Source: Paramacrobiotus metropolitanus (Eukaryota > Tardigrada > Eutardigrada > Parachela > Macrobiotidae). From it: DNA of 64,000 bases. Shown in pieces: positions 23,707 to 60,200 of the stretch. The notes beneath the pieces were generated by a model, which was not told where the DNA came from, made no database searches, and saw only the letters and a list, made by a program, of their open reading frames with translations. The position numbers and the translations under genes are program-made. Location of the stretch: NCBI RefSeq assembly GCF_019649055.1, contig NW_026570286.1, positions 310,001 through 374,000 on the forward strand. The letters run 5' to 3'. Each line of letters begins with the position of its first letter. The first letter of the stretch is position 1.

Positions 23707-25369
23707 TCAGGTGTAAGTTCTTGACTGCGAACTGCTTCCCCGAAGTACACGTCCAATCTTGCTGCGTTCCTCGAAAAGGCTTCTTACCATAACCACCTAT
23801 AAAATCCAATAATTTCAAAAGGCTGTTTCGCTACTAACAAGTTAAAGTACTTTGAACTGCGTGCAAACAAAAGAAAACGATTATCATCCAAAAAAGCAAG
23901 CGACAAATTTTAGGTACGTCAACTCTCCGCAGAACATTACCTGGACAACGCCGACCAGAATCATCACAACTACAAAGAAGACAACTTAAGCACTTCGTGA
24001 TTATTATTTACAATGAAAAAATCTAAAGGAAAACATTTTTACGTTACTTCTGCGCCCAGTGTCTTATACCTGTTTGACATCCGGAATAAAAGTTAACTCT
24101 TTCGAAATTCGATTCCAGAACCATCCTATCCACGGCCTCCAAATGCTTTACCGTCCCTTGTGTCTTCACCACCTTTTCCAAATTGAGATGCACTCGCCCC
24201 AGGCCTTGTTGCAGATCCTCCATCTTGACGCCCATCGTATCCACTTGACCCTGACCCAACTCGTGAAACTGCGCTACATGTGTCTCTTGCTTGTCTTCGA
24301 ATACTTCGAAAAATACTAGTTTGTGTTGAAACATGGAAAAGGAGTTATCAAAGCAAATCTGGTATTCGCCGGGCGCTCGACCATCTAAGCGGTGAAGATT
24401 GTCGCTCTTCCGCTGCTCCTGGACAATCATGGCGCCATTCGGATCGCGAATGGCAAAATTAATATCCAATTCTCCACCGCTAATCACCTGCAAGATAATA
24501 CAATACTTAGCTAAGACGAGAATCAATACTTCTACAGCAGCTCCTGATGTAGTTTTAAATTTCAGAAACAAAGTCGAAGACAAACAGAGAAAGTGGTGGA
24601 TAGCGGTCAAGCAGAAACAATCCCACTCAAAGAATCAAATTAAATACTTCTTTTACACTACTGTACAAAAAACAAGAATGCAAATCGTATATCTAGAGAT
24701 TTCATAAAACAAATACAACTGATATTGTAGCGCAAATTAGTAAAGTGCATCAAAACTTCACAGAAGCAATATTTCAAAAATATTAATTTACAATTAACGT
24801 ATTTAGTTTTCTACAAGCCACAAAGCGTTCGACATACTACCCAGATTCATACCATCCACCATAATTAATATTGATTTAAAACCTTAAATACTTACGTACT
24901 TAAAATTAATACGTACTGTACTAAATTTACTGTAAGCTTAGCAACACGCCCGGATTAAGAGCACTGTAATTACAAGTACAGTATGTACAATACTCTACTC
25001 TATAAGAAACCGAAAGGATATTAAACGTCCACGAAACCACTACTAACCATAAACACCCACCTGATACTCCACTTCGAAAGGAGAATTTGCAGCCGCTGAA
25101 ACGAAAAAAATCAATATCATCGATGCTGTAAAGTGTCTTGCAAAATAATTGCATCTTCACTAACCATGTGCTAAACAGTAAACCGGTCACGCGTAGAGTC
25201 TTAGACACCTACCTACGTGATAGAAACATTCTATCTTCCCAGCTGGAATCTGCACGGTCAGTGTAGCGATGCTTTGTCCAACAAGCCCCCTCCAATCCAA
25301 CACAATGATGAAGAACGATAAAACAAGACTCAAGGCTGATACACCGCTCCGTAACGATAATTTCTCCAT
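23707..25369 (-). CDS. TMED5: p24 cargo receptor, TMED1/5 (gamma) type
   Basis: Type I membrane protein of the early secretory pathway, cycling between ER and Golgi in COPI/COPII vesicles. The first exon (25369-25213) has a signal peptide with a long hydrophobic core (LSLVLSFFIIVLDW) and begins the GOLD domain with IPAGKIECFYH. Next come the exons with FEVEYQ and VISGGELDINFAI, KSDNLHRLDG and CFDNSFSMFQHKLVFFEV, all diagnostic of p24 GOLD domains. A coiled coil (LQQGLGRVHLNLEKV) leads to ESNFERVNFYSG, and a transmembrane helix (VVFFVVVMILVGVVQ) to a tail VMVRSLFEERSK. The tail matches the VQVxxLKSLFEDKR type of TMED1/5 but runs on about 15 residues to RTYT, so it lacks a C-terminal KKXX signal. 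Confidence 0.93.
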
Positions 25370-29483: not shown

Positions 29484-30355
29484 TTATATAAGAGTAGCCA
29501 GTTTAAACTTCTTTGGCAGAGGATTGGGAATAATGTGGATATGCTTCTTAAAAATCAAATGTCCTTTCCGTCCGGCATACTTTTGTTGCACCATCTCGTT
29601 GTTCCAATCGGGATCAATTATTTCACTGGTTATCATCATACGACCTCCTTCCTTCGCTCGCAATGTCCCATCCCATTCGACATCCACCTGCAATACAAAC
29701 AGTCTCAGTGTCACTCACAAAAAATTTTTTTGCTTTATCCGCACACGGATATCAAAGGTTTCCGATTCGTAAATTTGCACTGCAACAAATTTAACAGAAT
29801 AAGCCAATTTTAGAAATAAATTATGCAACAATGCCCAGTTTTACTATCAAATATTAAAAAACAATCAACTGATTTACAATTTGTGGTTTAAAAACTGCGT
29901 AATGGAAGCCACAACCGTACAACAAATTGATCAGACGTCAGTAAAAGCAGCTGCATTAAACTGAAAACAATTAACAGTAAATGCAACCAAAATACGGAGG
30001 ATGTTTGCTGAAGTCTTCTCTCGCTTACATATTGTCCCGGATGGTACATGAGATCGTATTGGCGGCACAACAGCTGCCCAGGCACCACCATGTCCCCGTC
30101 GAAGGCATGCAGTCCACGGTCAAAAATACCCCAAACACGCCATTTTCGTTTTTTGTCGATTCTCACTTCCGTCTGCGCTAAGGCTGTCACTAACTGTGTA
30201 TTAACATCTGCTGTTCGGGTTTTCAAGCTTGGCCGCACGGTACTATCACGCTTCTTCGTGAAGCATCGGTGCGGCACGATCACTTGGCAGGCAATTACAT
30301 TGGGGTCCAAAGTACGCCGTAGATGCTGACATAAATTCACCGATAGCCTGTTCAT
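29484..30355 (-). CDS. MRPL27: Mitochondrial large-subunit ribosomal protein bL27m
   Basis: Component of the mitochondrial ribosome near the peptidyl-transferase centre. Two exons, 30355-30029 and 29687-29484, joining in phase 0 to 176 residues. The N-terminal ~60 residues are basic and Ser/Arg-rich, as in a mitochondrial presequence. The L27 core is recognisable but divergent: the VWGIFDRG segment, VVPGQLLCRQYDLMYHPGQYV (family 'GNIIATQRHFRWHPGAHV'), and the end KKHIHIIPNPLPKKFKLATLI matching 'HVVPAKPEGTFKLVAML'. It is slightly longer than human bL27m (148 residues). Its start faces that of ERAL1 across about 770 bases. Confidence 0.85.
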
Positions 30356-31128
30356 TTTCCAGATCAGGCTCCTATCGTGGAAAACAACTGAAAGACCAGA
30401 AAAGGGAACATCAATTCGAGTACTACAGCACGTTGCACAAAGAAAGCCAACAGCAACGAACACTCCAAACCCGTTAGTTAGGCGCGAGAATGCAAAGAAC
30501 ACAATTTTTTTCGTTAAATCTTCAAGGTCTTAAGCTTTCATGATTTACGTCTTACACTTCCCAGTTTGCTTTTACGGCTTTACCTTTCGGGTTCTGGATG
30601 TTAGCAGTTCGAGGTACAAACAAAATCACAAACGATAAACTGCAGCCAATCGCCCACGGTAATCAGCTGTGCTTCGCTTACAATCGAGGAATATCTCCCG
30701 TTACTAGAACAGTAGTTTAAAAATCACGAAAATGGCACAAAAAACATTTTTTGCAACTTCTAAACAATCTAAGGAAAATAAAATCGTTTTACTTTTTACT
30801 TTTAACTTCCCAAATAGTCGCAAAATTAAACCTTATCTAGGATTAGGCTTATCATCCGCGTATGGTAAGAACCTTATGGCTCAGAGTTTTTAACGTAACA
30901 AAATAACGGTGCGGGCGCCGCTGCGACCAAATTTATACGTTTACAGTACATGAAATGGCAGACCGAAAACTCTTTGACAAATTTCCAAGTTTAGTTTGTA
31001 TTCTGTTTGTTTGCGAATTTTAACACAATTTTATTGTTTTTTAGACTTTTATTAGTAGTGGGACGATCGTGTTTTTCGATTATGTGGGGATTCTCAGCTC
31101 GGAGCGCAAACTAATATAATTTATAAAA
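30356..31128. promoter_or_regulatory. Divergent promoter region of MRPL27 (-) and ERAL1 (+)
   Basis: Head-to-head spacing of 773 bases between two mitoribosome-related genes. AT-rich with no exon that I trust; a minus-strand open frame continues upstream of the MRPL27 ATG to 30502 but would replace the presequence by a hydrophobic run. Confidence 0.5.
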
Positions 31129-33346
31129 ATGTCCATAAGATCTGGTCTATCCAGACTGCTAAGCGTTCGGCACCGACTGCGCGAATTCTATTGCAGTACC
31201 AACACCTTCGAACCGTATTTGAATTTATCCATGCGCTTTCCTCTGACCTGTGGTGTCTGTCGCAGTTACAGCCAGAACGCTTACCAGAATCAGGACGATG
31301 TTGATTTTATTGCGGAAGAGCTGGAATTCGACAGCACGGACCTCGCCGTCCCTAACGCTGCTCCATCTCCTGCTCGCACTGAGCAGTTCTCTTCTGCAGT
31401 CAGGTCTGAACATGGCAAGTTCTCTACCGCGGTCAGCACGGAACACGTCCCTTCTCCCTCCGCGATGTGGGATCGTCGGGTTCCCCTGTCTGTGGGTATG
31501 CCTTTGCAAACCACGCATTTTTCGCTCAAACTGCAGTCTGCAGCCAGCGATAACGAGAATTTATTTTCTGCAGACGAATACAAATCTCTTACGCTGCGAC
31601 CAACGGAGCAGGTTGTAAATCCGCGATATCTGAGAGTATCCATAATCGGCTCCCCCAACGCTGGCAAATCTACTTTAACTAATCAGATTCTTGGCTGGAG
31701 GGTGAGTGTATATTGCGCGGTAATTTTCTGTGTTATTTTGTTGTCAGTTATGAGAAGCAAACACTAAATTTGTTACTTTGTTGCAGTCTCGGCTTGTTCG
31801 GTGCATTCAGACCAATCTCTTTTCCTCCTTGTTTTACAAGATTTTATTTTCAAATTCAATAGTATTTTCAGTATCAGTATGATAACCGGCCATAACAGAA
31901 AATTATTGTTGTAAATGTATTAGAAATTTTTTTAAAAAATAATTTTTAAAAATTAAAATTTAATTTAGAAAATTGAGAATTTAGAAAATTTAGAATAGAA
32001 ATTTTCAGTTTAAAAAATTTTTCCTAGCCAAGCGAAGACAGGAAAAATTCTCCATGATGTTTTTCGTTTTCAAATGACGAAATCTTTAAATACTGTACAA
32101 GTACTCCTTTTTTGTATAGGTGAGTTCTGTTTCGGCCAAAGTCCATACAACCCGCCGCAACACATTAGCCATCATGACGGAGGAAAACGTCCAGCTCGTC
32201 CTCGTCGACACACCCGGCATCGTCAATCCGAAGCACGCTAAGAAGCACCACTTAGAGCGCTCCTTAGTGACGGATCCCGGCGCCAGCTTACTGGCGGTGG
32301 ATGTGGTGGCCGTGATCGTCGACGCGTCCCAACCGTATTCCGAGCGCACCTTGGATCCCCTCATCCTCCACATGTTGTACTCCAATCCCTACCTGGAGTG
32401 TATCCTCATCCTGAATAAAGTCGACCGAATAAAGAAAAAGTCTAAGCTGCTGGAAATGGCCAACGTGTTGACGTGTGGCGTGGTGGATTCAGTCAAAGTG
32501 CAGCGGCATGAACCGGTGGAGTCGTATTTGTCACGGGCGCAGAAAGGGCAGCTGAAATTGGAGCGTGCCACGGGATTGCGCCCGGCCGCCGCCGATCCGG
32601 AAGCCACGTTCTGGGATGATGTGGAGGCGTTCGGCAAGATGGAGTGGTTTGAGGATAAACGGCGATTTGTCGAGGAACGGTGTGGCTGGCCGAAATTCAA
32701 GGAGGTGTTCATGATATCCGCGCTGGATGGAGATGGTATTGAAGAATTAAAGGTATAAAAAGTGTGCTGTTACTGGTTAACAGTGCCGATCGACGGATAT
32801 TATTTTTGTAGAGTTATCTGATGAAGACCGCGCATGCAGCGGAGTGGCGATTCAATCCGGAGCTTGTGTCGAACCAGTCGCCGAGAGAAATTGTTCTTAT
32901 GGCGGTCAGAGAGAAGCTGCTGGAGCATTTGCGCTTCCAGCTCCCGTACCAGGTGGAACTGTTTTTGAAGGAATGGCAGGTGGATGATAGGGGCACATTA
33001 CGACTTTCTGTGCAAGTGAAGTGCCCGAAAAAGTCCGATATGGTGAGTTTGGTGATCACCGATATGGTGATCACCTGGTAAAACTGTTTAAGTTTTGCTC
33101 ATATCAATTAGCATTACAGTTCAGCGTAGCTTTGTCAGATGAAATAATGAACTCGTAGCATTTTTAAATTCTTCTGTTTTACAGAAATATGTGGTTGGAG
33201 AAAATGGTCGACGTATTCGCGAAATCGCATACGAAGCCGGTCAAGAAATGATGAACACTTTTCGATGTGAGGTGTTGTTAAGATTGATAGTAACCTTTGA
33301 TTTGTTTGATTGTTCTTATGAATTCTTCGTGGCAGAGCAGTTGTGA
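31129..33346 (+). CDS. ERAL1: Era-like GTPase, mitochondrial (ERAL1)
   Basis: Mitochondrial GTPase that binds the small-subunit rRNA and assists its assembly. Exons 31129-31701, 32120-32752, 32812-33042 and 33185-33346 sum to 532 residues. The first ~160 residues hold an Arg/Ser-rich presequence and a low-complexity Ser/Ala linker. The GTPase domain has G1 GSPNAGKST, G3 DTPG, G4 NKVD and G5 SAL (ISALDGDG). Between G4 and G5 there is an insertion of about 70 residues (including SRAQKGQLKLERATG), as in animal ERAL1. The C-terminal KH domain is complete: FQLPYQVELFLKEWQVD and the RNA-binding GxxG in VGENGRRIREI. The last 25 residues (FDLFDCSYEFF) are unusual and may reflect a different last splice. 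Confidence 0.94.
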
Positions 33347-38955: not shown

Positions 38956-39640
38956 TTATGTGTTCCATCCATACGCAAAGGGTTTCAGCATTCCCAGTGT
39001 CTTGTCACGAAACGTGGTAATCATATGCTTCTCATTCTTCCCTCCAACCATAATGATTCTTCCCGTGGCAAAAATCAGAAAACACATCCCGAATCCTCCC
39101 TTATAACCTTCCTGACCGGCCGATTTTTCAGGTAGATGAGTCACCGCTCCGAATGTATCCTGATCCAGATACGTGCTGTCCTGATACTTCTCCGCAAATC
39201 CCGATATATCCAAATGCACTCCCAATTCCATCATGGCAGTGAGATTCTTGGCGCGGAAATTGCGTTTGGAGATGTCCGGTGTAAAGCCGCAATTGCGTAG
39301 AATCTCCAAGGTGTTGCGCGTGGCGATGAGGGCGTTCTTAATCGTGGCCACACCGGTGATGACCATCTTGCCGTTCTCAAAGACGGCCACCCGCACCTCC
39401 GATCGGGGAAAGGTGATAACCGCGTTATGGAACCACGTCGGGTCGAAATTACAACATCGCACTCGGGAGTGCAGATCTTCTAGGGATATCCGACATTTGG
39501 CATCATACGTCGCCACAACGGAGACGAAGGCGAATTTAAACGGGTCGGCTGGATTGGCACGGGTGTTGGAGTTGTCAGGGAGTGGTTGCGGTTGTTCCGT
39601 GGAGACAGTTGTGTTTTTCGGAGGTACAACAGGAGGTGCT
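38956..39640 (-). CDS. Divergent TATA-binding-protein-like factor (5' exon missing)
   Basis: Predicted DNA-binding transcription factor with the two-repeat TBP saddle fold. The large exon begins at an acceptor near 39640 with a Pro/Asn/Thr-rich leader (PPKNTTVSTEQPQPLPD). Repeat 1: FAFVSVVATYDAKCRISLED, CCNFDPTWFHNAVITF, VAVFENGKMVITG (TBP 'ALIFSSGKMVCTG') and LEILRNCGF. Repeat 2: NLTAMMELGVHLDI (TBP 'NMVGSCDVKFPIRL'), then an extra Gly/Lys-rich loop (EKSAGQEGYKGG), CFLIFATGRIIMVGG and FRDKTLGMLKPF. Identity to canonical TBP is clearly low, so it is a TBP-related factor or a fast-evolving paralogue, not the general TBP. No ATG start is visible upstream in frame; the first exon should lie between 39641 and 40282. 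Confidence 0.75.
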
Positions 39641-40282
39641 GCAAAATATAACTGGTATAATTATATGAGCAGGTAAAACTTGAAAACAAGTCTCTTATAA
39701 TTAGTCTCCACCCACCGCTTCGTCACAACCGCAAAAGTAAGATACTCATACAATAGGCAGTACAGAATAATGATACAGACTGTAGAAGTACTCGTTAAGG
39801 TTAAACGAAATGCGGCCTTTTCTTTCCTGTTTTGAGTGTTTTTCTACTTCAGTTTAATTTTTTATTATTTTCGGATTAAAGGTTTTTCGTTTTCAGGAAC
39901 AAATCGTCATATTAAAAGACAGAAGCTAAAACAAAAGGGAAAAAATTTCCGGGAAAGGGGTTTGAACTCGGGACCCACAAAACCCTTTGGCACTAATGTT
40001 TGCTTAGCACGAAACGAATGCATTACCACTGATCTACGGGAGCAATATTATCCTATTAACCATTTTGGTATCAGAACATCTTAAAAAGAACAATTGTTTT
40101 GGTAAAAAAAATTACAAAGATAACGTACTAAATTTGTACGCATACGCCGTATAGTGCAAAATTATTTGCCGCAAAACTGTATTCCCAATAACAAAATAAT
40201 TAAGAAACCAATATTACCGACTAACAAAATCGCAGCCGCGCAATATCAACGAAAAAATTATTTTTAACCGTTTTAAGCGTTT
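39641..40282. other. Region between TBP-like exon and acidic-protein gene
   Basis: Should contain the missing first exon of the TBP-like gene. I could not identify it. The tRNA-derived element at 39950-40045 lies inside. Confidence 0.4.
39950..40045 (-). repeat. tRNA-like sequence, probably a tRNA-derived SINE
   Basis: On the minus strand the block reads 'tcccgtagatcagtggtaatgc', matching a tRNA 5' end with A box, and about 55 bases later 'gtcccgagttcaaaccc', matching a B box and T arm. The region between is too long and unpaired for a normal anticodon arm, and the 3' acceptor strand does not pair with the 5' strand, so an active tRNA is unlikely. Pol III-derived SINE heads have this form. 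Confidence 0.55.
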
Positions 40283-41080
40283 TTAGCGTAAGCACTTACG
40301 CACAACCCGATTTTTCCCTGCCGGATGATTTTCCTCGATCGTCCTGGTAACGAAGGCCGTCAGCTTATTCAGAGCCGCCTGACTGTTGACGCCCAGGAGG
40401 TCTTTATCCAGTCCCTCCAGCGTCACTTCCACATTCTCTGCCGTCAGCTCTTCATCGAGCTGAATGTTGGCGTCCTCCGCTTCCTGCGCTGCCTCCGCTG
40501 CTTCATTCTGTTCCGCCGCTTCTTCATCCTCCTTGATAATTCGCTCCAATTCCTCCACCGTCTCCTTGCGGATGTGCATCCCCACTTTCCCGAAGGGACC
40601 CCATTTCATCTGAGCGAGCTGTTCGAGGGATGATGAAATCGGGGCAGACGGTCGCGGTAAAGCGCCCATGTTGTGTTGCTCGCGGATGGCTTTAGTTTTA
40701 GCGTTGATTAAATTGCACAGCGTCTCCAGGCCGTCTTGCCGCGAGGAGCAAGCGACCAGCTGCTCGATGTAGCGGCTGGTAGTGGGAACGGGGGCATCGC
40801 TGGAATCTTCGGCAGCGGCTTCCAAATTGGAAGCGAGTTCTGTAAAGTACAATTTCCCATGAAAAACTGCTGCATTGCTATTAACGTCCTTGGTATCCCA
40901 AACACCGCTTTTCTGTCTGCCGAATAACTGTTGTTATACGGTCAGAATTTATCAGATTTATCACACACCGTAGCGGGTATCGGATTCGGTCTCACTGCCG
41001 AAGATATCGTCCTCGTCATCATCGAGACTTTGTGAGGTAGTCGGTTTGCTCGAGGAGGCTGTATTGCGCGTGGAAGGCAT
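40283..41080 (-). CDS. Acidic helical protein of unknown function
   Basis: Two exons, 41080-40969 and 40839-40283, total 669 bases, 222 residues. N-terminus: Ser/Thr-rich with an acidic patch (DDDEDDIFGSETESD). Middle: helical SRYIEQLVACSSRQDGLETLCNLINAK, then a Trp-containing motif MKWGPFGKVGMHI. The C-terminal half has Glu/Ala-rich helices (ELERIIKEDEEAAEQNEAAEAAQEAED) and ends VVRKCLR. No signal peptide or membrane segment. The balance of acidic patches and helices suggests a nuclear or chaperone-type subunit, but I do not recognise a family. Confidence 0.7.
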
Positions 41081-41509
41081 CTGATCAATTAGGAAACGAA
41101 CAAATATGAAATTTACCCAAGCTGTCTCTTCCTGCTTTTGTCGAAACTCTTCTTTGCGTAAAACTATCACGAACTTCGCACTGTTAAATGCGACTGTCTT
41201 GAATTCGAAACATTCGAAACAAAACTTAAAGGCAAAAACAAGGGCCACAAGGCTTTTAAATTTTTGTAGAAACAATTCAAAAACAGAAAGAGGCATATTT
41301 TCAAGATCAACATCTGGCGGACGCCCACCGCCTCTGGTTGTCGATTGCGATCTGTTGTGTTGTCACTTAATATCTCTTCCTTCAGGTTGTCACCGTGGTT
41401 GTGGTTGCAGTTTGCAGCTGTTAAAAATTAAATCGCTCCCTAATTGTAATTTTATCATACAAATGTTCCCGTTGTGCATACAGTATATTCCTCTAAAATA
41501 TTAACTACA
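41081..41509. promoter_or_regulatory. Divergent upstream region of acidic gene (-) and fusion enzyme (+)
   Basis: The two start codons face each other across 429 bases. No exon or clear promoter motif seen; frames in this stretch are shadows. Confidence 0.45.
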
Positions 41510-44500
41510 ATGGAAAACCACGGCATTGTAATGTTTCTGGAACAGTCTCTGGATGATATGAAACAGTATATGCAGAGCACCATCACGGCTTATCTACAGT
41601 TGCGAGGTATGCGATCTGGATCAACGATTTTTGTGCTTTTTTAGCTTTTTAAATTTTAATCCTGGTGTTTGTTACGTGCAGGCCGTGGAAACTCTTTCCT
41701 GCCATTTTGGGACTGTGTTGTAATAACGGCATGTGATGCCGATCAGGCCTTAGCTTTTCGTTTGCAGCTGGATCAGAAAGAAAAGGCTAAACTGGTGCCA
41801 GCAACCAAATTCATCGTGGTCGAAGATGTGCCACCGTTTCCTGGATGTAAAATTGGTAGGAGTTTGCAATTCACTGTTTAAAATGTGGTGTTCGCTTATC
41901 AACTGCCTAGCATTTCGATTATCGTTAATTTTTATATAAATGACTTGCATTTATGATTTATGGTTGTTACAGTTTTATCAACGATTTGTTTGCACTTGTT
42001 TTTGAGTATTCGTACAGTGTTTTCTATGCAACAGGCGCTGGTGGATCAACGTTTTTGGTTATCGAACGATTACGTAAGCTTTACGGAACCGATTTGGAAC
42101 GCCAGAAAATTCTTCTCATTCACGCTGGAGGCTGGAGTCAGCGGTTGCCATCGGCAAGCATTCTGGGCAAGCTTTTTATGCCGCTACCAATCGGTAAGGA
42201 ATTCTGAACAACTGTCAGTGGAATTTTATTAAATTAGTTAAACAGAAAAGTAAAAATAGTCATTTTTATACATAAAACATAATCGCATTTAACTCCTGTT
42301 ATGCATTTAGTCTTAGTGTAATTATTTTATTAGCTAAACATTGTCATCCGTAAATACTCTGCGGAAACAAGCTAGTGAATTATACAACGTATCGGTATCG
42401 CTTCATGAATCGAAAGTAATTTTAGCGTTTCCTGTTTTCAGGCAATTTTGACATGGATATGTTAGATTTAAAACTTGCATTATACATGCCGTTCATCCCG
42501 TTCATGAAACCGGGGATTTTTCTGACCGCATCCGACGACATCGAGCTGTTCAACTTGACGTTGCCCACTCCGTCTTCTCCGCATTCCGGTTTCGTCTGTC
42601 TGGGACATCCTTCCAGCCTGCACATCGGTTCAACACACGGCGTATACGTTTGTGATAAATCATCCACTGTTGGATTATCCTCATTCCTTGGCTGCCACCG
42701 AGTGTTGCAGAAACCCACCGAGCAGGAGATGTGGAACGCCGGAGCGGTGCTTCGCGGGCAGAGTGGTGGCGCAGACGGCATTCCTTTCGTTATCAGTGAT
42801 AGCGCGTATTGGTTTGATATGGAGATTGTTGGCAAGCTGGAACGGTTTTATCAAAAACATGGGATACCAGAAGTGGAAGTGGATGCGTACGGTGACTTCC
42901 TTCAACCGTTAGGCGATGCGGCCACCCAGGATTATATTGATAAAGGCAAAAATGCCAAATTAAGCGACACACGGCGTGATTTGTTCAGTTGTCTTCGTGA
43001 TGCTCCGGTTCAGGTGCTGTTTTTACCGCAGTCATTATTTCTTCATTTGGGAACGATGCCGGAATACTTACACAATGTATTAAGTGATAAGATGTTTCGG
43101 GAATGCTTTGATATCAGGAACACCTGTATGAAATCTAGCATTTCATCGGACTGTGATATCTCCCCGAAAGCTGTGTTGGAATATTGTAATTTTTCTGCAC
43201 CGGTGAAAGTTAATGATAACTGTTTCCTTAGTGGGTGCTGTGCAAAAATCGGCGATCCCGTGGAAATTCCGGAAGGCACATTTATGCATACGGTGGTGAT
43301 TTCGAAAGATGGCCGACGGTGTTATGCTACTATTTTCTGTGGTATTGGAGATGATATCAAGCGTGAGGTTGACGCCAAGAACGTTGTCGATTTGATGCTA
43401 TTCAATAAGCCTTTATCAAGCTATGGGGCATTCCGATCGATGCGACATGAACCAAAGCTGTCTCTTTGGACATTGAAATTATTTAAGATTTGCTCCACAC
43501 CGGATTTATCATTTTATAAAAGTCTGGAGCAAATAAACAGTTTGCGTAACGGCATGGAGGTCGGTTTGGAGCGTGATGAATCCATGATTTCCATGTCAGA
43601 TGTGCTGGCTTTAAAAGATGTGCAAGGAATGCTGGAATTACGTTCGTTCCTCAACCACACAGGGATTTCCGGTACTGGGATTGATATTGTGAGTACCGGC
43701 ATCGAAGCAGTTAAACCAGAATCACTAATAAAAGCTAGCGTTAGTGTGAAAGATGGTTTGCTCACTTTAAGGGACTTTAATGGAGCGGTCAAGATGACAT
43801 ATCCGGTGGCCAGCCGAAAAGATGTCTATATTTTTGCGGTTGGGAAAGCTGCACTGGGAATGTTCAAAGCGGTGTATGCTCATTTGGAAAATTTTGTTGC
43901 TGGTGGATTTGTTATGTTGCCCTGCGAACAGGGAGAAATGACCGAGCTCAACAGGTGAGGATTTTCCAGTCCTAGTACTCGTACTTTTGTAATATTTATG
44001 ACCGTGCCGCGGTAATTGCAGTCATTCTATTTTATAAAATCTCACAAGGTTTCGTTCTTGATTTTTAGATTGAAGTACCGATTATTGAACGTGATCTTTT
44101 CTTTTGGTGGCCGTAATAATCTTCCGGACACCTCTTCTGTTGAGAGTACACAAGAAGCCATTAAATTTCTGCGTACTTTACCCTCTGGAAGCTGTCTGAT
44201 TTGTTGTATATCCGGCGGAGCGTCAGCCATTTTGGTGGCTCCGAAATTTCCTGTCACACTGGAAGACAAGCTGACAATTATAAAACAGCTGGCTCAGCAT
44301 GGTGCGCCGATAAACGAACTCAACACGGTTCGAGGATGTTTGTCTGACGTGAAGTTTGGCCACCTGTTGCATCACATTCCAATAGGAGTTCAAGTTGGCA
44401 GTCTGGTTCTGTCGGATATTATCGGAGATCCAATAGAACTGATCGGAGGAGCACCAACAGTGAGTAGGCGAATAGAGTCTGCAGATGCTGTAGGGATTAT

Positions 44501-45203
44501 GAAGAAATATGGACTATGGGACGGCATACCGAAAAACGTGGAAATGGTTCTGTTAGATGAGCATGCTCAGGCCGTGCCTGCCGTTGCACCTGCGAATATT
44601 TTAATTGGAAATAACATGGTTGCTCTGCGGGCATGTCGTGATACAGCGAAAGCTTTGGGTTATCAGCCTGTTATTCTTTCCGATTGCTTGCAAGGTTTTG
44701 CCAAGGATGTTGGTGCGGATTTTGTCCGTATTCTGCGAACGGTAGCAGCATTGCGAAATGGTGAAAGAAGCGATGCTGCTGATCAGCCACGACTTTTGGC
44801 CAATGTCGAACTGCCTAATATTGACTGGAGACAGCCGGTATGCTTCTTAGCGGGAGGAGAGACTACCGTTCGGGTTCACGGGACCGGGAAAGGAGGAAGA
44901 AATCAGGAAATGGTGCTGGCCTTCGCCATACGGTACAGCGAAGAAAGAAAGGCGTGTAGCGGTGTTCAGGGAATGTTTGTGAGCGTCGGCACCGATGGGC
45001 AGGATGGACCCACGGATGCGGCTGGAGCTGTGGTTTGCTTTCCGTTGACTCCTGATCCAAGGGATGTGGAACGAGCTAACACGGCGCTGACCAATAATGA
45101 TGCGTATAATTTCTTCTGTGATGCTAATCGTTGGGGTCAGTTAGTGAAAACTGGACCGACAGGAACAAATGTGATGGATTTGCAGTTGTTGTTAATTGAT
45201 TGA
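41510..45203 (+). CDS. Fusion enzyme: fucose-1-phosphate guanylyltransferase + glycerate kinase
   Basis: Five exons, 41510-41606, 41682-41855, 42035-42193, 42442-43954, 44069-45203, sum 3078 bases, 1025 residues, every junction in phase. Residues 1 to about 545 are a full FPGT, which makes GDP-L-fucose from fucose-1-phosphate and GTP. Seen in order: VVITACDADQA, HAGGWSQRLPSASILGKLF (nucleotide-binding loop), KPGIFLTASDDIEL, IGSTHGVYV, EVDAYGDFLQPLG, LLxxYxxxDV-type end MSDVLALKDVQGMLELRSFL as in human FPGT. Residues ~550-1025 are a complete glycerate 2-kinase (GLYCTK, MOFRL type): GIEAVKPESLIKASVSVKDG, FAVGKAALGM, LICCISGGASAIL, ELNTVRGCLSDVKFG, VLSDIIGDPIE, GGRNQEMVLA, GTDGQDGPTDAAGA and TGPTGTNVMDL. 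The FPGT end and the kinase start lie in the same uninterrupted exon (about 43640-43680), so the link is genomic, not a splicing artefact. The kinase lacks the mitochondrial leader of human GLYCTK, so the whole enzyme is probably cytosolic. Confidence 0.93.
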
Positions 45204-46245: not shown

Positions 46246-48098
46246 ATGGTATTCTATTGTCAAAATTGTCTCAGGGATTTCCCTGCTGGGCTCCCGGTGA
46301 GTGGCAAGCTAGACTCAATACGTAAACAAACAGAACAAAACGTACAGCGAATTCCACTCAGAATTTCATTGTCCGTGGTAGTTAGTACGGTTACGCTGGC
46401 CGGCGGGCTTCTAGAGTGGACGTTGTTTTGTCTGCTGCAGTACGTTGCAGCACGAAGCAGTCCGGTCTGCAATTTCCCATGAGGGTTCTCGCAGTTGCGA
46501 TTACCATAACTGTTTTTTTTAAATTTTGAGCTTTATTTGTCGACCTACGCCACTGTTTTATCTAGGATGGCAGCTGTCCTGATTGTTACACATTGGGTGC
46601 AATTGGAGATCTGGCATCCGTGACGTCATCGCTGCAGCAACTGCAGGTAAGCAATCACTCTGACATTTTTAACTCCACGTTACAAAATGTATATGATGTA
46701 AATGATAATTTATTAATAGATAATAGTTACCTACTGAAAATGCTAATCAACGCAAAAGTCCTCGTTATAGAAATACTCGTATATTAAAATTATTATGTTT
46801 TCGCGAAGACGACCGTGCCCAACGTAACTCCACCCGCGGGTGGTGCTGCTTCTTCGACCGGAAATGCTCCACAGTCGTCTCCTCGCGCTGCTACTGCTAG
46901 CCTGCAACATTCCGCACCTGCCGGGACGAGCCAAAACCGTGCAGCTTTCCCCCCTACGGTCTGGCCTCTTGAAGAATATCAATTATATCATCGACAATAT
47001 TCCGTGAAACTGCTGCATTCGTAGGGACCAAGGTATGCTCGGGCAATGCCGAAGTTGCGCTCGCAGCGACTCGCACCGAACACATTCCGCATGCCCGAGC
47101 GTGCGGCTGCCCCTTTAGCCACCAATAACGGATTTCCTGGTTTGGGCGCTCCAGTGCCGGCTATGAATGCGGTGCCCGCTAATCCCGGTAAGTTGCCTCT
47201 GCGCGGAACGGGCACGATGGGAGATGCAGGCGGACAGTGTCCAGTTGCCAATGACAAGCCGGTTGCTGGTACTAACGGTGTGTAACCGTGTGTTGCTTTC
47301 GTTACTTGCTTGGAAGAGCTCTTGTCGGCCTTTTAGAGTAATTTATTGATAGCTAAAATGGTTTTGTAATGTACAAAGTACCGCTGAATATTATAAAATT
47401 CAATTTTCTCGTCTTAGGTTATGGCAAATTGTGTGCGAGCATTGCACAGCTAAATGCGCAACTTTTGCCTTACCTGGAGACCTGTGCGGATCCCCTTGTT
47501 AAAAACCAGCTGGCTGATCTGCTTGTAAGATAAAGCATCATAAGAAAAGTCATGGAAACGCAAAAGAATATGATGTCTTTCGCCGTTACAGGAAAGCACT
47601 TTGAACGTTGTGGATTCGGTCAATGGAAAGCCAGTTGAATTGAAAAGGTTTGTAATTGTAAAATTGTAATAGCTAGGTGGACCTACTCTTAGAGCGGTAA
47701 TAGTTACTGTATTGTACTGAACCAAAATTATTTAAGCACAGTATTAGTAGAATATTGTGTGACAGCATTATTATGATCACCTTATGAAAACATACCTGGC
47801 ATTCAGTTGCAACTTATGTTATGAAATGACCGAAAAGATTCATGCATTGTTTTCTAGCCGCCCGAGCTTGGTCGAGACCAGCAATGGAGGAAAAGAGAAC
47901 CGTGCCATTGCCAATGCCAACCAAAACGGCTCCCATTTGAAGTGCTACTTCTGCTATAATGATCCCATGACTGTGCTGTTCTTACCGTGCAAACATATCT
48001 GCGCTTGCGAGAAGTGTTCCCGGGAAGTCGTGGAATGCCCTTTTTGCCGCAAAAAAATCACCAATAAGGAAAACGTGTATATCATGACTATCGACTAA
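46246..48098 (+). CDS. RING-finger protein, probable E3 ubiquitin ligase
   Basis: Seven exons: 46246-46296, 46566-46646, 46809-46958, 47025-47187 or 47277, 47418-47524, 47592-47647, 47858-48098; 312 residues with the longer exon 4, 282 with the shorter. The N-terminus has two Cys pairs, YCQNC and CPDC, in a small zinc-ribbon arrangement. Then come a Ser/Ala/Pro-rich disordered middle (PPAGGAASSTGNAPQSSP) and a short helical stretch (ASIAQLNAQLLPYLETC). The C-terminal RING is C3HC4: CYFCYNDPMTVLFLPCKHICACEKC then CPFC, the compact form seen at the ends of IAP and MDM2-type ligases. No BIR or p53-binding domain is seen, so I give no family name. Exon 4 has two donors in the same phase. Confidence 0.82.
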
Positions 48099-54490: not shown

Positions 54491-57264
54491 TCAAACACAA
54501 ACTTCCTCAACTTTCAGCAGCTCCTGTCGCTCATGCTGCCCGTCGGTATTAGCCGTGGTAATGGTGATGACCTTTTCGTATCCGGTATGATGGTTGGCAT
54601 GGTTAGTGTCCACGGATGGACGGCGTAGGCGGTTAACGTTGTTGTTGTCCGGATGATCCATCGGGCCCGTCATATCGATGGTGCTCTTCCGACTCCGATC
54701 TCCGGCTGTCGTCAATGGGGCTTTTGACATCATTACCGATCGCTCAAACATATCCCCATTGTTGTACATCCGCTTGGTCCACGGTGAACAGAATACATTG
54801 GCGAACGTCGTCCGGAAGTCACTGCTGCAGCCGACGTAGACGTAAAAGTTCAGTGCGTAGTTGGTCAGTTCCAGTAAATTGGCAAACGCCCGGAACAGCT
54901 TCAGTCCGAACCCGAAATCCTCATCGCGTACCGGTATGATGAGGAGGATGGCGGCCGGTGTGACGCAGACAAAGAACATCACCACAATGCCGATCAGCAG
55001 CAGCACTAACCGGCGTTCTTCCTGCAAGCGCTTGAATTCGGCTTTTGCGGCGGGTGTACTGCTGATGGACTGTCGGTTCGTCTCGTTGGCTTCGTTAATG
55101 CTAATCGCGCGCTCAGATTCTTTGCGCTTTTTTGAACCAGCACCTATGGTCGAACCTGCCAGTAAAAATACCATGTTTATTATATTCTTATGATTACTTG
55201 AAATGCTTTGCTTTATAACATTCTCAGCTGATAATTCGCTATGGAACTGTATATACAGTGCGCATATTGTTCAGGATTTCAACAAGGAACATGCCGATCT
55301 ATCCATTATGATCGTCATAGATCTATCAACATCAGCAATTATATCAATTTTCAAGCGTAAATGTGACCGGTTTTACCCGCCATCAACTAGGTCGTTCTCT
55401 GTACAAACACAAAATCAAAACGTACTCGCTTCGTCAGACTTCTGAATTTACATTTGCATAATTCGTGTACTGGTATCTTTTGCTTAACACTGGTAACGGC
55501 TCTGTATAACTGGTGTGCCTGCAAACATGTTTACATGTTTGTCATTAATTTGTCTGCATTGGGAAACCTCAAATGCTTACATGGCGCGAGTACTGCATAT
55601 AGTGCATATGCAGATCGTACAATGTTTTTTTATTATTTTCTGGCAATAAACCCACTAAAACCTTAGAAAGCATTTACAACAGGCAAAAATTAAGTTGAAT
55701 GCAAATATCATACATGTATGGTATAAAGATGTCACTAACTGAAAGTGCACACCTCATTTAAGCATGCACTTGCAATAAAAAGTCGCTCAGCCAAAAGACA
55801 GTTCCTTGTAATCGAAAGTTAATAGTCAAAGTAATTTATGACCCTATTCGAGAGCATCCGAATTGGCTTAATTCTGACAAAATGGATAACGACTGTGTGA
55901 ATAAAAAATGCATGTTACGTAGAGTGAACGACCTTCGTTAAAAAGTAAACAGCTGTGCTGTACCTGCAGAGAATCTTCCTGTCATATTCATGACCCGAAA
56001 GGTTGCTTATTACAACACTGGACTCGTGATTAAAACCTTGAAACCGTATAAATTTCTTGAAATTGTCAGTAATACAAATTTTCATATTAATTCCACTGCT
56101 CTGCGTCGGTCTTTTTATCAGTTATACATACTCCACTTGGACCACATCCACCGAACGAAAGTTAGAATAAGAATATGCGTAGAATATGCGTACTTGTGTG
56201 TACATCCGCATATACGCATAAAGCTATTGAAATAATAAACTGAATACCTATTGAAATAATAAACTGACTGACCGATTTCAAGATTTAAGGCTTTTGAAAA
56301 TTCTGACATTTGCGGACACATTTATGGAAGCAAAAGCAGGCAGGGAGAATAGCCTCGTAAAAAGGTTGCTGATATATAATTCAAAGGTGAAGGTGGATTT
56401 TCAGAGAGACGACACTGGAACGTACGGTAGCCTGAGAATCTACCGGCAAGTGAAACTGCTGTTATTACTGCTAACGAGCTTATTTACAGTAATCCACGAT
56501 GGCATAAGAGCGGATATAATACCTTTTAATTTCCTCCTACGACTCTGGACTTTCCTTAGCGCCAGGACAATACGTAGATTAAGTACAGCCAGAATGGCCA
56601 TCGGAAGTAATCGGAGAACGGTCTCCCTCACCCATCCGTACACCACATAACCACGGCTGTGTGTAAAGGCCTCATCCTCCACAATCACATAGCCGGTACC
56701 ACCGTGCAGCGGATGATGGCAAATCTGTACCGACTTCCGGAAGCAATAGGGCAAATACAGGGCAAACGATATCACCCATCCGGCCGCGATGATGATTTTG
56801 GCACGCAGCGGACTCTGAATATTCTTGGCATGCATGGGATGACAAATGGACAGCCAGCGTTCAAAGGTCACCGCTACAATGCACAGTACACTGCTGCCCA
56901 CGAGGGCATTGAGGCACGGCAGGAGAACGTGGGCGTGGAAGAGGTTGCCGGTATAACCGGGAAAGGCGGCACCGCTCAGTTCGGCCACAAAGGGTATGAC
57001 CATAATCATGGTCAGCAAATCCGAGATGGCCATGGCACGGAAGTAGGTGTAGGTGATGATCTTCATCAGATTGGGCCGTGTTAATACCACCAGATTAAGG
57101 ATGTTGCCGATGATGCCCAGACCGGATAGGATGGGCATCAGAATCCCGTAGAGAATACGTTCCACCTTCTCCACGGCAATATCATCGGCGGAGCGCGTCT
57201 CATTGCTGGCCACGGATGAATTATCCAACGGGAGAGTACAGTAGAGTAATTTGTCGTTATCCAT
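54491..57264 (-). CDS. Class A GPCR, neuropeptide-receptor type
   Basis: Plasma-membrane G-protein-coupled receptor. Two exons, 57264-56523 and 55155-54491, joined in phase 1, 468 residues. The N-terminus carries N-glycosylation sites (NSS, NET). TM1 has GNILN, TM2 AISDLLT, TM3 ends in ERWLSICHP (ERW in place of DRY), TM4 has AAGWVISFALYLPYC, TM5 VLRLLPMAILAVLNLRI. The third loop is long, basic and Ser-rich (KKRKESERAISINEANE). TM6 is LVLLLIGIVVMFFVCVTPAAILL and TM7 LELTNYALNFYVYVG, with NFYVY for NPxxY. The Cys pair of the extracellular side is present (LPCLNAL and QICHH). Overall it fits invertebrate FMRFamide-type or orphan peptide receptors (C. elegans B0563.6-like group); no ligand can be named. 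The intron of 1367 bases falls in the third loop. Confidence 0.92.
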
Positions 57265-60200
57265 TAATAATGTCGACCATGGGTTGGCGTACTACTACCC
57301 AATGTAGCGTGTGCACTGTTGCGCGCGGCGACCCTGGCGCCCGGCTTCCCACACATATATGCAGAATATATATATATGCACACAACTGTGTCCGCGTTTA
57401 ATTGCTAAACAAACGGGAAATGAATTTCCTCTCCTTCCAGCTGCAGTGCAAACATGATCGCCGATGTTTGGTTGTTTTAAGCAATCGGCAGCACATCCAA
57501 CGGCTCCATATGTTCCGGGTAACTAATTTCTTGGATCATGTCGCAACTGTCCACACACATAGACACGTATATACATACAACACCCACCGGCGCATCATAG
57601 TGACCTGGAATAAAGTGAAAACGGAAATTATGCAATGATCGTGAAACACATCAGGCTGCACACCAACGCTACATATCGCGGCTACTTCCTGCTGGGTATA
57701 TATATTAAAAATTGTAACGGGGAGCACGTTGATGGAGAGTGTCATTTAACCACGACAATCTCCATTAAGGATGCCGACATTAGTTTGTAGTTATTAAACT
57801 TTTTTTGCAAAACGTGATTGTTGTGAGTTTCGTAATTGAATTAGATTAGGGATGTGTACGCACACGTCATGATCATGCCGGATAGGGGAATAGTAGACAA
57901 CAATTTTTCGTGACTGGCATGCTTATGATCATTGTTCGTGTACTGTAGTGTGGTATTACACACTGTCTGCTTGAACAATGACTCTATTGTGGCAAAACTG
58001 ATATTGATGATCCTATTTCAAGAACGTTACACTGTTTAGAAATACCACATTGCGTGATATTTGTTGATCTAGCGTTGCGTCGTTATTTGGAAGTTTGTTA
58101 TGTACTTAAAAAATTTTTGGATCAAAACAGACCGCAATATTTTTGTAATTATTCCCGACAATGGGTATAGTAATTTTAGTCATACAATAAAATGTTTTAG
58201 TGTGATTTCAAAATATGCATTTATCATCGGCCAAAACACTTTTTCTCTTTGAAATAATTGCGCTTTGCACACTAAAACAAGTTTTATTTACCATTAAAGC
58301 AATTTCTTTAACAAACATGACTAGGTTAAAAGTCATAGCCATTACGAACATCTCACCCCCAATAAAACCCACAAATAAATGGACAAATTCAGTACTGGTC
58401 ACGTTTGGCGATTAGCAGATAGATGTTACTGGCTTTCCATCCAAATTAGTAATTTAAAATATCGTTAGCTACTTGGAAATATGCGCATTTGGGAAGTTAA
58501 TGTACATGTAAGGAATACCAGCCCTGAATGCAAAAATCTCCAATCTGGCGGAAAGACCATTGATCATTTTTAATTGCTGTGGGAGCACGAAGATGGAATG
58601 TGTTCAATTTTTCCATCATGCATACAGTATGCGGGTCGGCGTCAGTGAACATGTCGGCATGTTGCCACTTTCATCACTCTCTACCAAGAATCTGCCGTAC
58701 CGCATAGCATTATTGTCCTTTCGCATTGACGCAAAACCTGCCGCTCAATAAACAAAATAAAAGTGCATGCATTAAAGATTCCGTTTTCTTACAAGCCCTG
58801 CGCTGACATATCTTTAGACTTTGATTTTTAAAAGCCTCGACTGTGGACTTCGAAGTTATTTTTATTTAAAATAAAATAACTGGAAAAAAATTACAAAACA
58901 TTTTGAACCATAATTTGCAACAACTGGGCTACATGCTTAAATAACGTTAGTTTTAGTATGGATTCTGGAACCGCTGTTGAAATCGGGTCGATAGTTGTGT
59001 GACAATGTAAAATTTATTGAGATTCACTACTTTAAACCAGCCTTTTCAAGTTGAGCATCCTGGACTGCAAAGAAACGCAGTAATAAAGCGTATGCGCATG
59101 GCATTGGTCGATATTTGTCTAGCTGGCGGGAAAGTTTATTTTGATAAGAGCTATACGATCGTGATCACGTTATCGATACAGATTGACCTCGGGACAACAA
59201 GCCGGGAATCTGGCCAATGTGTAATTTGCCTTGTACCGATTGTACATATATAACGGGGCGGCTTTGCCAATGGCCACTTAGCGTACGCTATAAAAAACGC
59301 TAATCTCAGCATAATGCGAATGCCTTTTATTACGGATATATACTGCATAGTACACAAAATGCACACACGCGCGGCAACACAAGTAGTGTAGTGAGAAGCC
59401 TTTAGAGTAAATCATTTTTCCATTCATGTCACACAGAGGGGCCAGCAACGGGTCTATCGATCTGTTGATCCAATGCCGACCGACTTCCGGTTGGCGTGGG
59501 CATGCAGCGCGCGACATTGCAGCTGTGCACCACTGCATAGGTCACGCCACCAAATGTCCCTGCTGTACCGGCACGAAATCGCTGTTTATATTAAGGATTG
59601 TACCTGATTTTCAGGTAATCTTTTCACAATCATCAGGGATTTGTATTGACTTCTTTTTCTATCCTTTATCATATTATTATGAAACTTTTGTTAAGAAATA
59701 CGTACACAGATGAGCGCGTTACTGAAACATTTTATTCTTTGAAAGTAAAAAGGTTATTTTCAAAACAAACCCTACTATGTTCATAGATAAATACACTATA
59801 GTAGTTTATTATTGTAATAATGCGTTATAGTTCATTTTGCATCATAATAATTCCTTACTCAAAAAAATATCCACAATTTTAACTTTACGAATCAAATTTC
59901 CGTTCTGGAAAATATAGATTGGTATCGTGCACAGGTATGAGTACGTATTCTGAGCACGCAGTTTGCATGCATACACAAAGGTCTATTCGTACAATAATTA
60001 GACCAAATTTCGCAAAATTTGCCTTATAAATGATGTCTATACAAAGACGTTTTGAATTCAGATTAAAATATTTGTGTTACCGATTTCATAAACCACTTAT
60101 CTATATTGCTCGTATAAAATGGAAGGAAGTAAATTTAGAGTTGTTAAAGCTGTTATATAGTAAATTAATTCGAATACCCAGTCCGATTTTATTTTCCGCA

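What the first reader, a model, noticed from the sequence alone, without database searches (positions are those of the whole stretch)
41510..45203. FPGT and glycerate kinase fused in one gene
A complete fucose-1-phosphate guanylyltransferase is followed in the same exon by a complete glycerate 2-kinase, with only a few linker residues. Hand-placed exons give one 1025-residue frame. Known fusions of fucose salvage enzymes join FPGT to fucokinase (plant FKGP, Bacteroides Fkp); I know of no FPGT-glycerate kinase fusion. If real it ties GDP-fucose salvage to glycerate (serine/fructose) metabolism in one polypeptide, or marks a lineage.
Basis: partly seen in the sequence, partly recalled or inferred. 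Interest (0 to 1): 0.85.

Follow-up and report, generated by a model that had tools for sequence, protein, structure and literature searches.

The report
Tardigrade FPGT–glycerate kinase fusion gene
In this tardigrade, an enzyme that activates the sugar fucose and an enzyme that phosphorylates glycerate, separate proteins in the other animals compared, are encoded as one protein by one gene, and two other tardigrades have the same fusion.

Summary
The fusion is real. Five exons (41510-45203, +) give one 1025-residue frame: a full fucose-1-phosphate guanylyltransferase (FPGT), about 12 poorly conserved residues, then a full class II glycerate kinase (GLYCTK). The genome fits the tardigrade Paramacrobiotus metropolitanus: an NCBI protein of that species is 100% identical to the FPGT half. 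The same architecture occurs in Ramazzottius varieornatus and Hypsibius exemplaris (49% and 45% identity over 99%), which belong to another superfamily, so the fusion predates that split. No other GLYCTK was found in the genome; the only other FPGT-type domain found is at what is probably the fucokinase gene. Known active-site residues are largely kept in both halves. My paper searches found no report of it.

New: the NCBI protein is an "isoform X2" ending at the junction. Removing an 83-nt stretch (43689-43771) explains it; that stretch codes for the conserved first helix of GLYCTK. The species may thus make FPGT alone as well as the fusion; I had no RNA data. I infer a bifunctional protein whose halves work independently. 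A metabolic link between fucose salvage and glycerate is not supported by anything found.

The parts
41510..41606 (+). exon 1 (start codon; FPGT N-terminus, aa 1-32)
   Evidence: same start as NCBI isoform X2 P0239
41682..41855 (+). exon 2 (FPGT)
42035..42193 (+). exon 3 (FPGT; GxGGST and HAGGxSQRLP nucleotide-binding motifs)
   Evidence: PF07959 match in this exon
42442..43954 (+). exon 4: rest of FPGT, linker, start of GLYCTK, in one frame
43647..43682 (+). linker, aa 546-557, 25% / 8% identical to Ramazzottius / Hypsibius
   Evidence: identities; coordinates follow from its offset
43689..43771 (+). 83-nt alternative intron inside exon 4 (donor GTGAGT, acceptor TTTAAG); explains NCBI isoform X2; codes for aa 560-587, the N-terminal helix region of GLYCTK
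43778..43780 (+). stop codon (TAA) of the FPGT-only isoform after removal of 43689-43771; 174 nt before the exon 4/5 junction
43683..44552 (+). DUF4147 domain (N-terminal GLYCTK domain), interrupted by intron 43955-44068
   Evidence: C66:353683-354552
44069..45203 (+). exon 5: rest of GLYCTK, stop codon
44838..45179 (+). MOFRL domain, the only one found in the genome
   Evidence: C66:354838-355179

Best explanation
It is a genuine bifunctional gene, fixed in a common ancestor of two superfamilies (Macrobiotoidea, Hypsibioidea) of the tardigrade order Parachela. Shown: one in-frame gene; the same architecture in three species; the only copies of both enzymes found in this genome; presumed active-site residues largely kept in both halves. 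Inferred: one cytosolic polypeptide makes GDP-fucose from fucose-1-phosphate and GTP in its N-terminal half and 2-phosphoglycerate from D-glycerate and ATP in its C-terminal half, each half folding and working by itself on a short flexible linker, without channelling. The likely origin is loss of the stop and start between two neighbouring genes. In P. metropolitanus an 83-nt intron-like stretch at the junction may be spliced out to give FPGT alone.
For: Gene model. Orthologous fusions in Ramazzottius and Hypsibius. Only one MOFRL and one DUF4147 locus found in the genome; the other PF07959 locus has GHMP-kinase N and C matches beside it, so it is probably the fucokinase. The window protein keeps 34 of 34 residues invariant in an alignment of 31 sequences (2 fusions, 29 stand-alone kinases), 42 of 49 nearly invariant ones examined (of 51 listed), and all 6 presumed active-site residues of Thermotoga TM1585. 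In the FPGT half 11 of 13 checked Bacteroides FKP residues are kept in the three-tardigrade profile. Identity drops in the linker (25% / 8%) and returns to the domain level right after it (55% / 41%). AlphaFold2 on the Ramazzottius fusion folds the GLYCTK half at pLDDT mostly above 90 from residue ~571, matching 1x3l and 2b8n.
Against: No activity or RNA data were available. The only P. metropolitanus protein listed is an FPGT-only isoform; no full-length fusion of that species was listed. Seven of the 49 nearly invariant kinase positions differ in the window protein (P0001 numbering: A683 to G, I699 to A, G720 to A, L723 to I, G765 to F, G797 to A, S1021 to A); the SGGG-to-SGGA change is in all three tardigrades. 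Two of 13 FKP residues differ (S39 to A, R79 to Q), and FKP Asp31, whose mutant is almost inactive, lies outside the aligned block and was not mapped.
Confidence: 0.8

Rival explanations
1. The fusion exists for metabolic or regulatory coupling: the two activities affect one another, or the protein lets GDP-fucose supply and glycerate use be controlled together.
For: Conserved in three species of two superfamilies. In Bacteroides FKP, the same-pathway fusion, the full-length protein is more efficient than the cut-out pyrophosphorylase domain (PMC11982464, passages seen).
Against: The reactions share no intermediate. Even in FKP no tunnel was identified (PMC11982464, passage). The linker is not conserved. 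A scan for prokaryotic FPGT relatives, meant to test gene neighbourhood, confirmed none of 35 pattern matches, so it says nothing either way.
Confidence: 0.1
2. In P. metropolitanus the main product is FPGT alone, made by splicing out 43689-43771; the fused protein is minor and the species has little glycerate kinase.
For: NCBI isoform X2 (561 aa) ends ...GTGIDI-GL, exactly what removal of these 83 nt gives. The donor GTGAGT is a consensus metazoan donor (recalled). No fused protein of this species was listed.
Against: The removed stretch is as conserved as the rest of the kinase (55% / 41%) and includes one residue invariant in all 31 sequences (P589 of P0001), so it is kept as coding sequence. 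The isoform's stop lies 174 nt before an exon junction, so it may be degraded (inference). The kinase half keeps 34 of 34 invariant residues.
Confidence: 0.1
3. Annotation or assembly artefact: two genes run together.
For: Wrongly fused gene models do occur: the annotators of Hypsibius dujardini broke about 40 fused models by hand (PMC5531438, passage seen).
Against: The frame is open in the DNA itself across the junction within one exon, with no stop. Three species agree. In the Ramazzottius protein no Met lies between the C-terminal part of FPGT (col. ~607 of A1) and the GKAA motif, so the kinase has no start of its own there.
Confidence: 0.02
4. One half is a dead passenger kept only as a fold.
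For: Seven of 49 nearly invariant kinase positions changed in the window protein; SGGG to SGGA in all three tardigrades.
Against: The known or presumed catalytic residues mapped are kept, with two FKP exceptions that also differ from FKP in the other animal FPGTs aligned. SGGA also occurs in a nematode kinase (Bursaphelenchus). No other copy of either enzyme was found.
Confidence: 0.05

Closest known systems
Animal FPGT (fucose-1-phosphate guanylyltransferase, GDP-fucose pyrophosphorylase, PF07959)
   Same: Full-length alignment, 35-40% identity to two fish and one centipede FPGT; nucleotide-site motifs kept.
   Different: The animal proteins compared end at the FPGT C-terminus; here a kinase follows.
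Class II glycerate 2-kinase (GLYCTK, MOFRL family; Thermotoga TM1585)
   Same: DUF4147 + MOFRL, all six presumed active-site residues, solved relatives 2b8n and 1x3l.
   Different: No N-terminus of its own; fused behind FPGT, so presumably cytosolic (inference).
FKP / FKGP (Bacteroides, plants): fucokinase fused to GDP-fucose pyrophosphorylase
   Same: Bifunctional protein with an N-terminal GDP-fucose pyrophosphorylase.
   Different: Partner is a GHMP fucokinase of the same pathway; here it is an unrelated glycerate kinase. The probable fucokinase is a separate gene in this genome.
FPGT-TNNI3K read-through loci of vertebrates
   Same: FPGT exons joined to a downstream gene; an example is P0338 (840 aa), named TNNI3K but carrying PF07959.
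   Different: Read-through of two genes by splicing (recalled); here one exon carries the junction and no other GLYCTK was found.

Membership tests
FPGT (PF07959) | Full pyrophosphorylase domain plus C-terminal region | tested here: met
   PF07959 E 4e-76 in exon 4, plus exon 3; aligns end to end with stand-alone FPGTs
FPGT (PF07959) | Nucleotide- and sugar-site residues known from Bacteroides FKP | tested here: met
   11 of 13 identical in the tardigrade profile; S39 is A and R79 is Q (Q in all five sequences); Asp31 not mapped
FPGT (PF07959) | Fucose-1-phosphate guanylyltransferase activity | not testable with these tools
   needs enzyme assay
Class II glycerate kinase (MOFRL) | DUF4147 followed by MOFRL | tested here: met
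Class II glycerate kinase (MOFRL) | Presumed active-site residues (TM1585 Lys47, Asp189, Glu312, Arg325, Asp351, Asn407; PMC1079889) | tested here: met
   window K612, D764, E912, R925, D957, N1015
Class II glycerate kinase (MOFRL) | D-glycerate 2-kinase activity | not testable with these tools
   needs enzyme assay
FKP/FKGP | GHMP fucokinase domain in the same protein | tested here: not met
   no GHMP match in the two main exons' frames; GHMP matches found with a PF07959 copy at C34
Exitron (exonic intron with coding potential) | Splice sites inside a coding exon, removed stretch protein-coding when kept | tested here: met
   43689-43771, GT...AG, in-frame coding when kept
Exitron (exonic intron with coding potential) | Splicing seen in RNA | not testable with these tools
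   only the NCBI isoform X2 protein seen; no reads held

The most novel reading that the evidence does not exclude
Parachelan tardigrades fixed a bifunctional FPGT-glycerate kinase, and P. metropolitanus has turned part of the kinase's coding sequence into a spliceable exitron at the junction. One gene can then switch between a two-enzyme protein and FPGT alone, so that glycerate kinase output can be turned down without touching fucose salvage.
Probability: 0.15. Interest if true: 0.65.

Novelty: new variant of a known kind. Interest (0 to 1): 0.45.

Why it matters
Two housekeeping enzymes of unrelated pathways were locked into one protein and stayed so in two superfamilies of tardigrades. It is a rare genomic character for tardigrade phylogeny (its presence in Heterotardigrada and Apochela can be checked), a natural test of whether fusing unrelated enzymes has any effect, and, through the junction intron, a possible case of a fusion being un-made at the RNA level.

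Tried and rejected
Artefact of two adjacent genes: rejected (open frame in one exon, three species). FKP-type fusion: rejected (no GHMP domain). Second GLYCTK elsewhere: none found. Bacterial origin of the kinase half: not supported, not excluded. In a 38-row tree the tardigrade kinases form one clade (100/99); with the midpoint root drawn they fall on the bacterial side with weak support (81/45), outside the bacterial group (100/97) rather than nested in it, and their place relative to other animals is unresolved. The FPGT halves form one clade (100/100) in a mostly protostome group (93/91), neighbours unresolved (31 rows). Separate start for the kinase: no Met in the Ramazzottius protein between the C-terminal part of FPGT and the GKAA motif; P. 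metropolitanus and Hypsibius have one Met near the FPGT C-terminus (in QGMLEL and RGMTDF), so an internal start there is not formally excluded. Neighbourhood test in prokaryotes: 35 pattern matches, none confirmed. A 60-sequence alignment appeared to stack kinases onto FPGT and was not used. AlphaFold2 was run on the Ramazzottius protein with a kinase-only alignment; 443 of 1053 residues, nearly all in the FPGT half, are under pLDDT 50, so it says nothing on that half or on domain arrangement. Papers: searches listed 0 papers; one search gave 33 with two of three terms (15 listed), one search gave 26 with two of six terms (25 listed); judged by title and start of abstract, none listed concerns this fusion. 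PMC12732313, PMC5531438, PMC8582207 and PMC11191345 were searched by terms only: 'glycerate' occurs in none of the four; fucose terms were asked in the last three and occur in none of them.

Full report
WHAT IS THERE. The predicted gene runs from 41510 to 45203 on the + strand in five exons (41510-41606, 41682-41855, 42035-42193, 42442-43954, 44069-45203), all introns GT...AG, giving 1025 residues. Pfam sees the fucose pyrophosphorylase domain (PF07959), DUF4147 (PF13660) and MOFRL (PF05161), in that order. The end of FPGT and the beginning of the glycerate kinase lie in exon 4 in one frame; the kinase is finished in exon 5.

WHOSE GENOME. The assembly holding the window has 169.8 Mb in 533 contigs. 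Protein P0239, named by NCBI 'fucose-1-phosphate guanylyltransferase-like isoform X2 [Paramacrobiotus metropolitanus]', is 100% identical to the whole FPGT half. A paper gives this species a 170-Mbp genome (PMC11191345, passage). Taxonomy: Eutardigrada, Parachela, Macrobiotoidea.

CONSERVATION. A search of the 1025-residue protein gave 152 proteins with E <= 0.001 (120 listed). Two align over 99% of it and carry all three Pfam domains: P0001 of Ramazzottius varieornatus (1053 aa, 49%) and P0002 of Hypsibius exemplaris (1116 aa, 45%). The other 118 listed hits cover at most 52% of the query. Only the 7989 candidates sharing most words were scored, so distant fusions could be missed. Both species are Hypsibioidea, P. 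metropolitanus is Macrobiotoidea. Among the listed relatives, FPGTs of arthropods (Strigamia, Limulus, Ixodes, Chamberlinius) and kinases of crustaceans, insects and nematodes are stand-alone proteins (120 listed of 7994 and of 189). The fusion is therefore best placed on the tardigrade lineage, before these two superfamilies split; other tardigrade classes or orders did not appear in the lists.

COPIES. One MOFRL and one DUF4147 locus were found in the genome, both here. PF07959 has this locus and one other; beside the other one lie ORFs over the cut-offs of GHMP_kinases_N and _C, so it is probably the fucokinase gene; I did not build its exon model. [quoted passage not shown] The genome also has one Dak1 (triokinase-type) match and three O-fucosyltransferase matches at two places, so plausible pathway partners exist on both sides.

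ACTIVE SITES. Six conserved residues point into the presumed active site of the Thermotoga enzyme TM1585: Lys47, Asp189, Glu312, Arg325, Asp351, Asn407 (PMC1079889, passages). They correspond to K612, D764, E912, R925, D957 and N1015 of the fusion. Of 34 residues invariant in an alignment of the two database fusions with 29 stand-alone kinases, the window protein keeps 34; of 49 nearly invariant ones examined (51 were listed; the start Met and one column with a gap in P0001 were left out) it keeps 42. For the FPGT half, 13 residues of Bacteroides FKP were mapped through the printed alignment and 11 are identical in the tardigrade profile; S39 is A and R79 is Q. FKP His272 also aligns with a histidine (H345) in the second, weak block of that alignment. 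FKP Asp31 lies outside the block and was not mapped. The roles of these FKP residues are from PMC11982464 (passages).

THE JUNCTION. Residues 546-557 are only 25% and 8% identical to Ramazzottius and Hypsibius, against 50% / 49% for the FPGT part and 49% / 43% for the kinase part. That is what a linker looks like. In the Ramazzottius protein there is no methionine between the C-terminal part of FPGT and the GKAA motif of the kinase, so an internal start for a full kinase is not available there. In the AlphaFold2 model of the Ramazzottius protein the kinase begins at about residue 571 with helix 572-586 in a block of mean pLDDT 95, and the model's only solved matches with E <= 0.001 are 1x3l and 2b8n.

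AN RNA SWITCH? P0239 ends ...GISGTGIDI-GL. Removing 43689-43771 gives exactly this: ATT|GTGAGT ... CTTTAAG|GGACTTTAA (two other acceptors within 20 kb fit the pattern but would make introns of 805 and 9010 nt). The stretch is 83 nt, so its removal shifts the frame and the third codon after it is a stop, leaving complete FPGT and no kinase. The removed stretch codes for residues 560-587, the first helix region of the kinase, conserved at 55% / 41% (residues 560-588). It is therefore coding sequence with splice sites, an exitron. The Hypsibius protein has I-L-D where P. metropolitanus has I-V-S (GTGAGT), so this donor cannot be at that place in Hypsibius; Ramazzottius has I-V-T, which rules out GTGAGT but not a weaker GT. 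The switch, if real, looks younger than the fusion. The stop lies 174 nt upstream of the last exon junction, so the transcript may be a target of decay (inference). NCBI's isoform X1 was not seen; no P. metropolitanus fusion was listed, and the cluster of P0239 has two members, which may hide it (inference).

ORIGIN. The tardigrade FPGT halves form one clade (100/100) within a mostly protostome group (93/91; 31-row tree). The kinase halves form one clade (100/99); drawn with a midpoint root they fall on the bacterial side with weak support (81/45) but outside the bacterial group (38-row tree). Nothing requires gene transfer, and the tree does not exclude it for the kinase half.

MECHANISM. I commit to a bifunctional protein with independent halves (0.8 for the whole statement).

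NOVELTY. FPGT, GLYCTK and the FPGT-fucokinase fusion are known. FPGT fused to GLYCTK was not found in print, although the database entries of Ramazzottius and Hypsibius already carry all three Pfam domains. I rate it a new variant of a known kind.

Noticed in passing
window 38956-39660 (-) and whole genome: The ORF about 2 kb upstream of the fusion is a divergent TATA-binding-protein (PF00352) homologue, and the genome gave 150 TBP-domain matches, the 150 scored of 493 candidates, far more than the few TBP genes of other animals (recalled).
   Followed up: partly
L008-L013 (G000:C69, C128, C52, C12, C81, C110): TBP-like ORFs sit in repeats of about 5 kb or more, mostly 96-99% identical between contigs (two families; one short piece 90%, one 92%), beside ORFs weakly matching an rve integrase, an A32-like packaging ATPase and an adenovirus-type protease, all three below Pfam's cut-offs; a fourth ORF scanned had no match. 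This is the hallmark set of Maverick/Polinton elements (recalled). A TBP-like gene carried by such elements in high copy number would be remarkable. Described only; one paper search found nothing on it.
   Followed up: partly
window 40961-41510: A - strand open frame has its 5' side about 150 nt from the ATG of the fusion gene, which would fit a shared divergent promoter region; no Pfam match to that frame.
   Followed up: no
window 54491-57291 (-), 9333-10331 (+), 47763-48098 (+), 31120-32758 (+), 24044-24634 (-), 18653-19168 (-), 29888-30529 (-): Neighbouring gene pieces: GPCR (7tm_1), astacin protease, RING finger, GTPase (MMR_HSR1), emp24/gp25L, Ndc80/HEC, and a weak ribosomal L27 match.
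   Followed up: no
L007 (G000:C34:1209500-1219400): Probable fucokinase gene: PF07959 and GHMP-kinase pieces over many small open frames.
   Followed up: partly
P0002 (Hypsibius), just before the GTDGQDG motif: The Hypsibius kinase half carries a repeated TPPxxSLQ insert, absent from the other two tardigrades.
   Followed up: no
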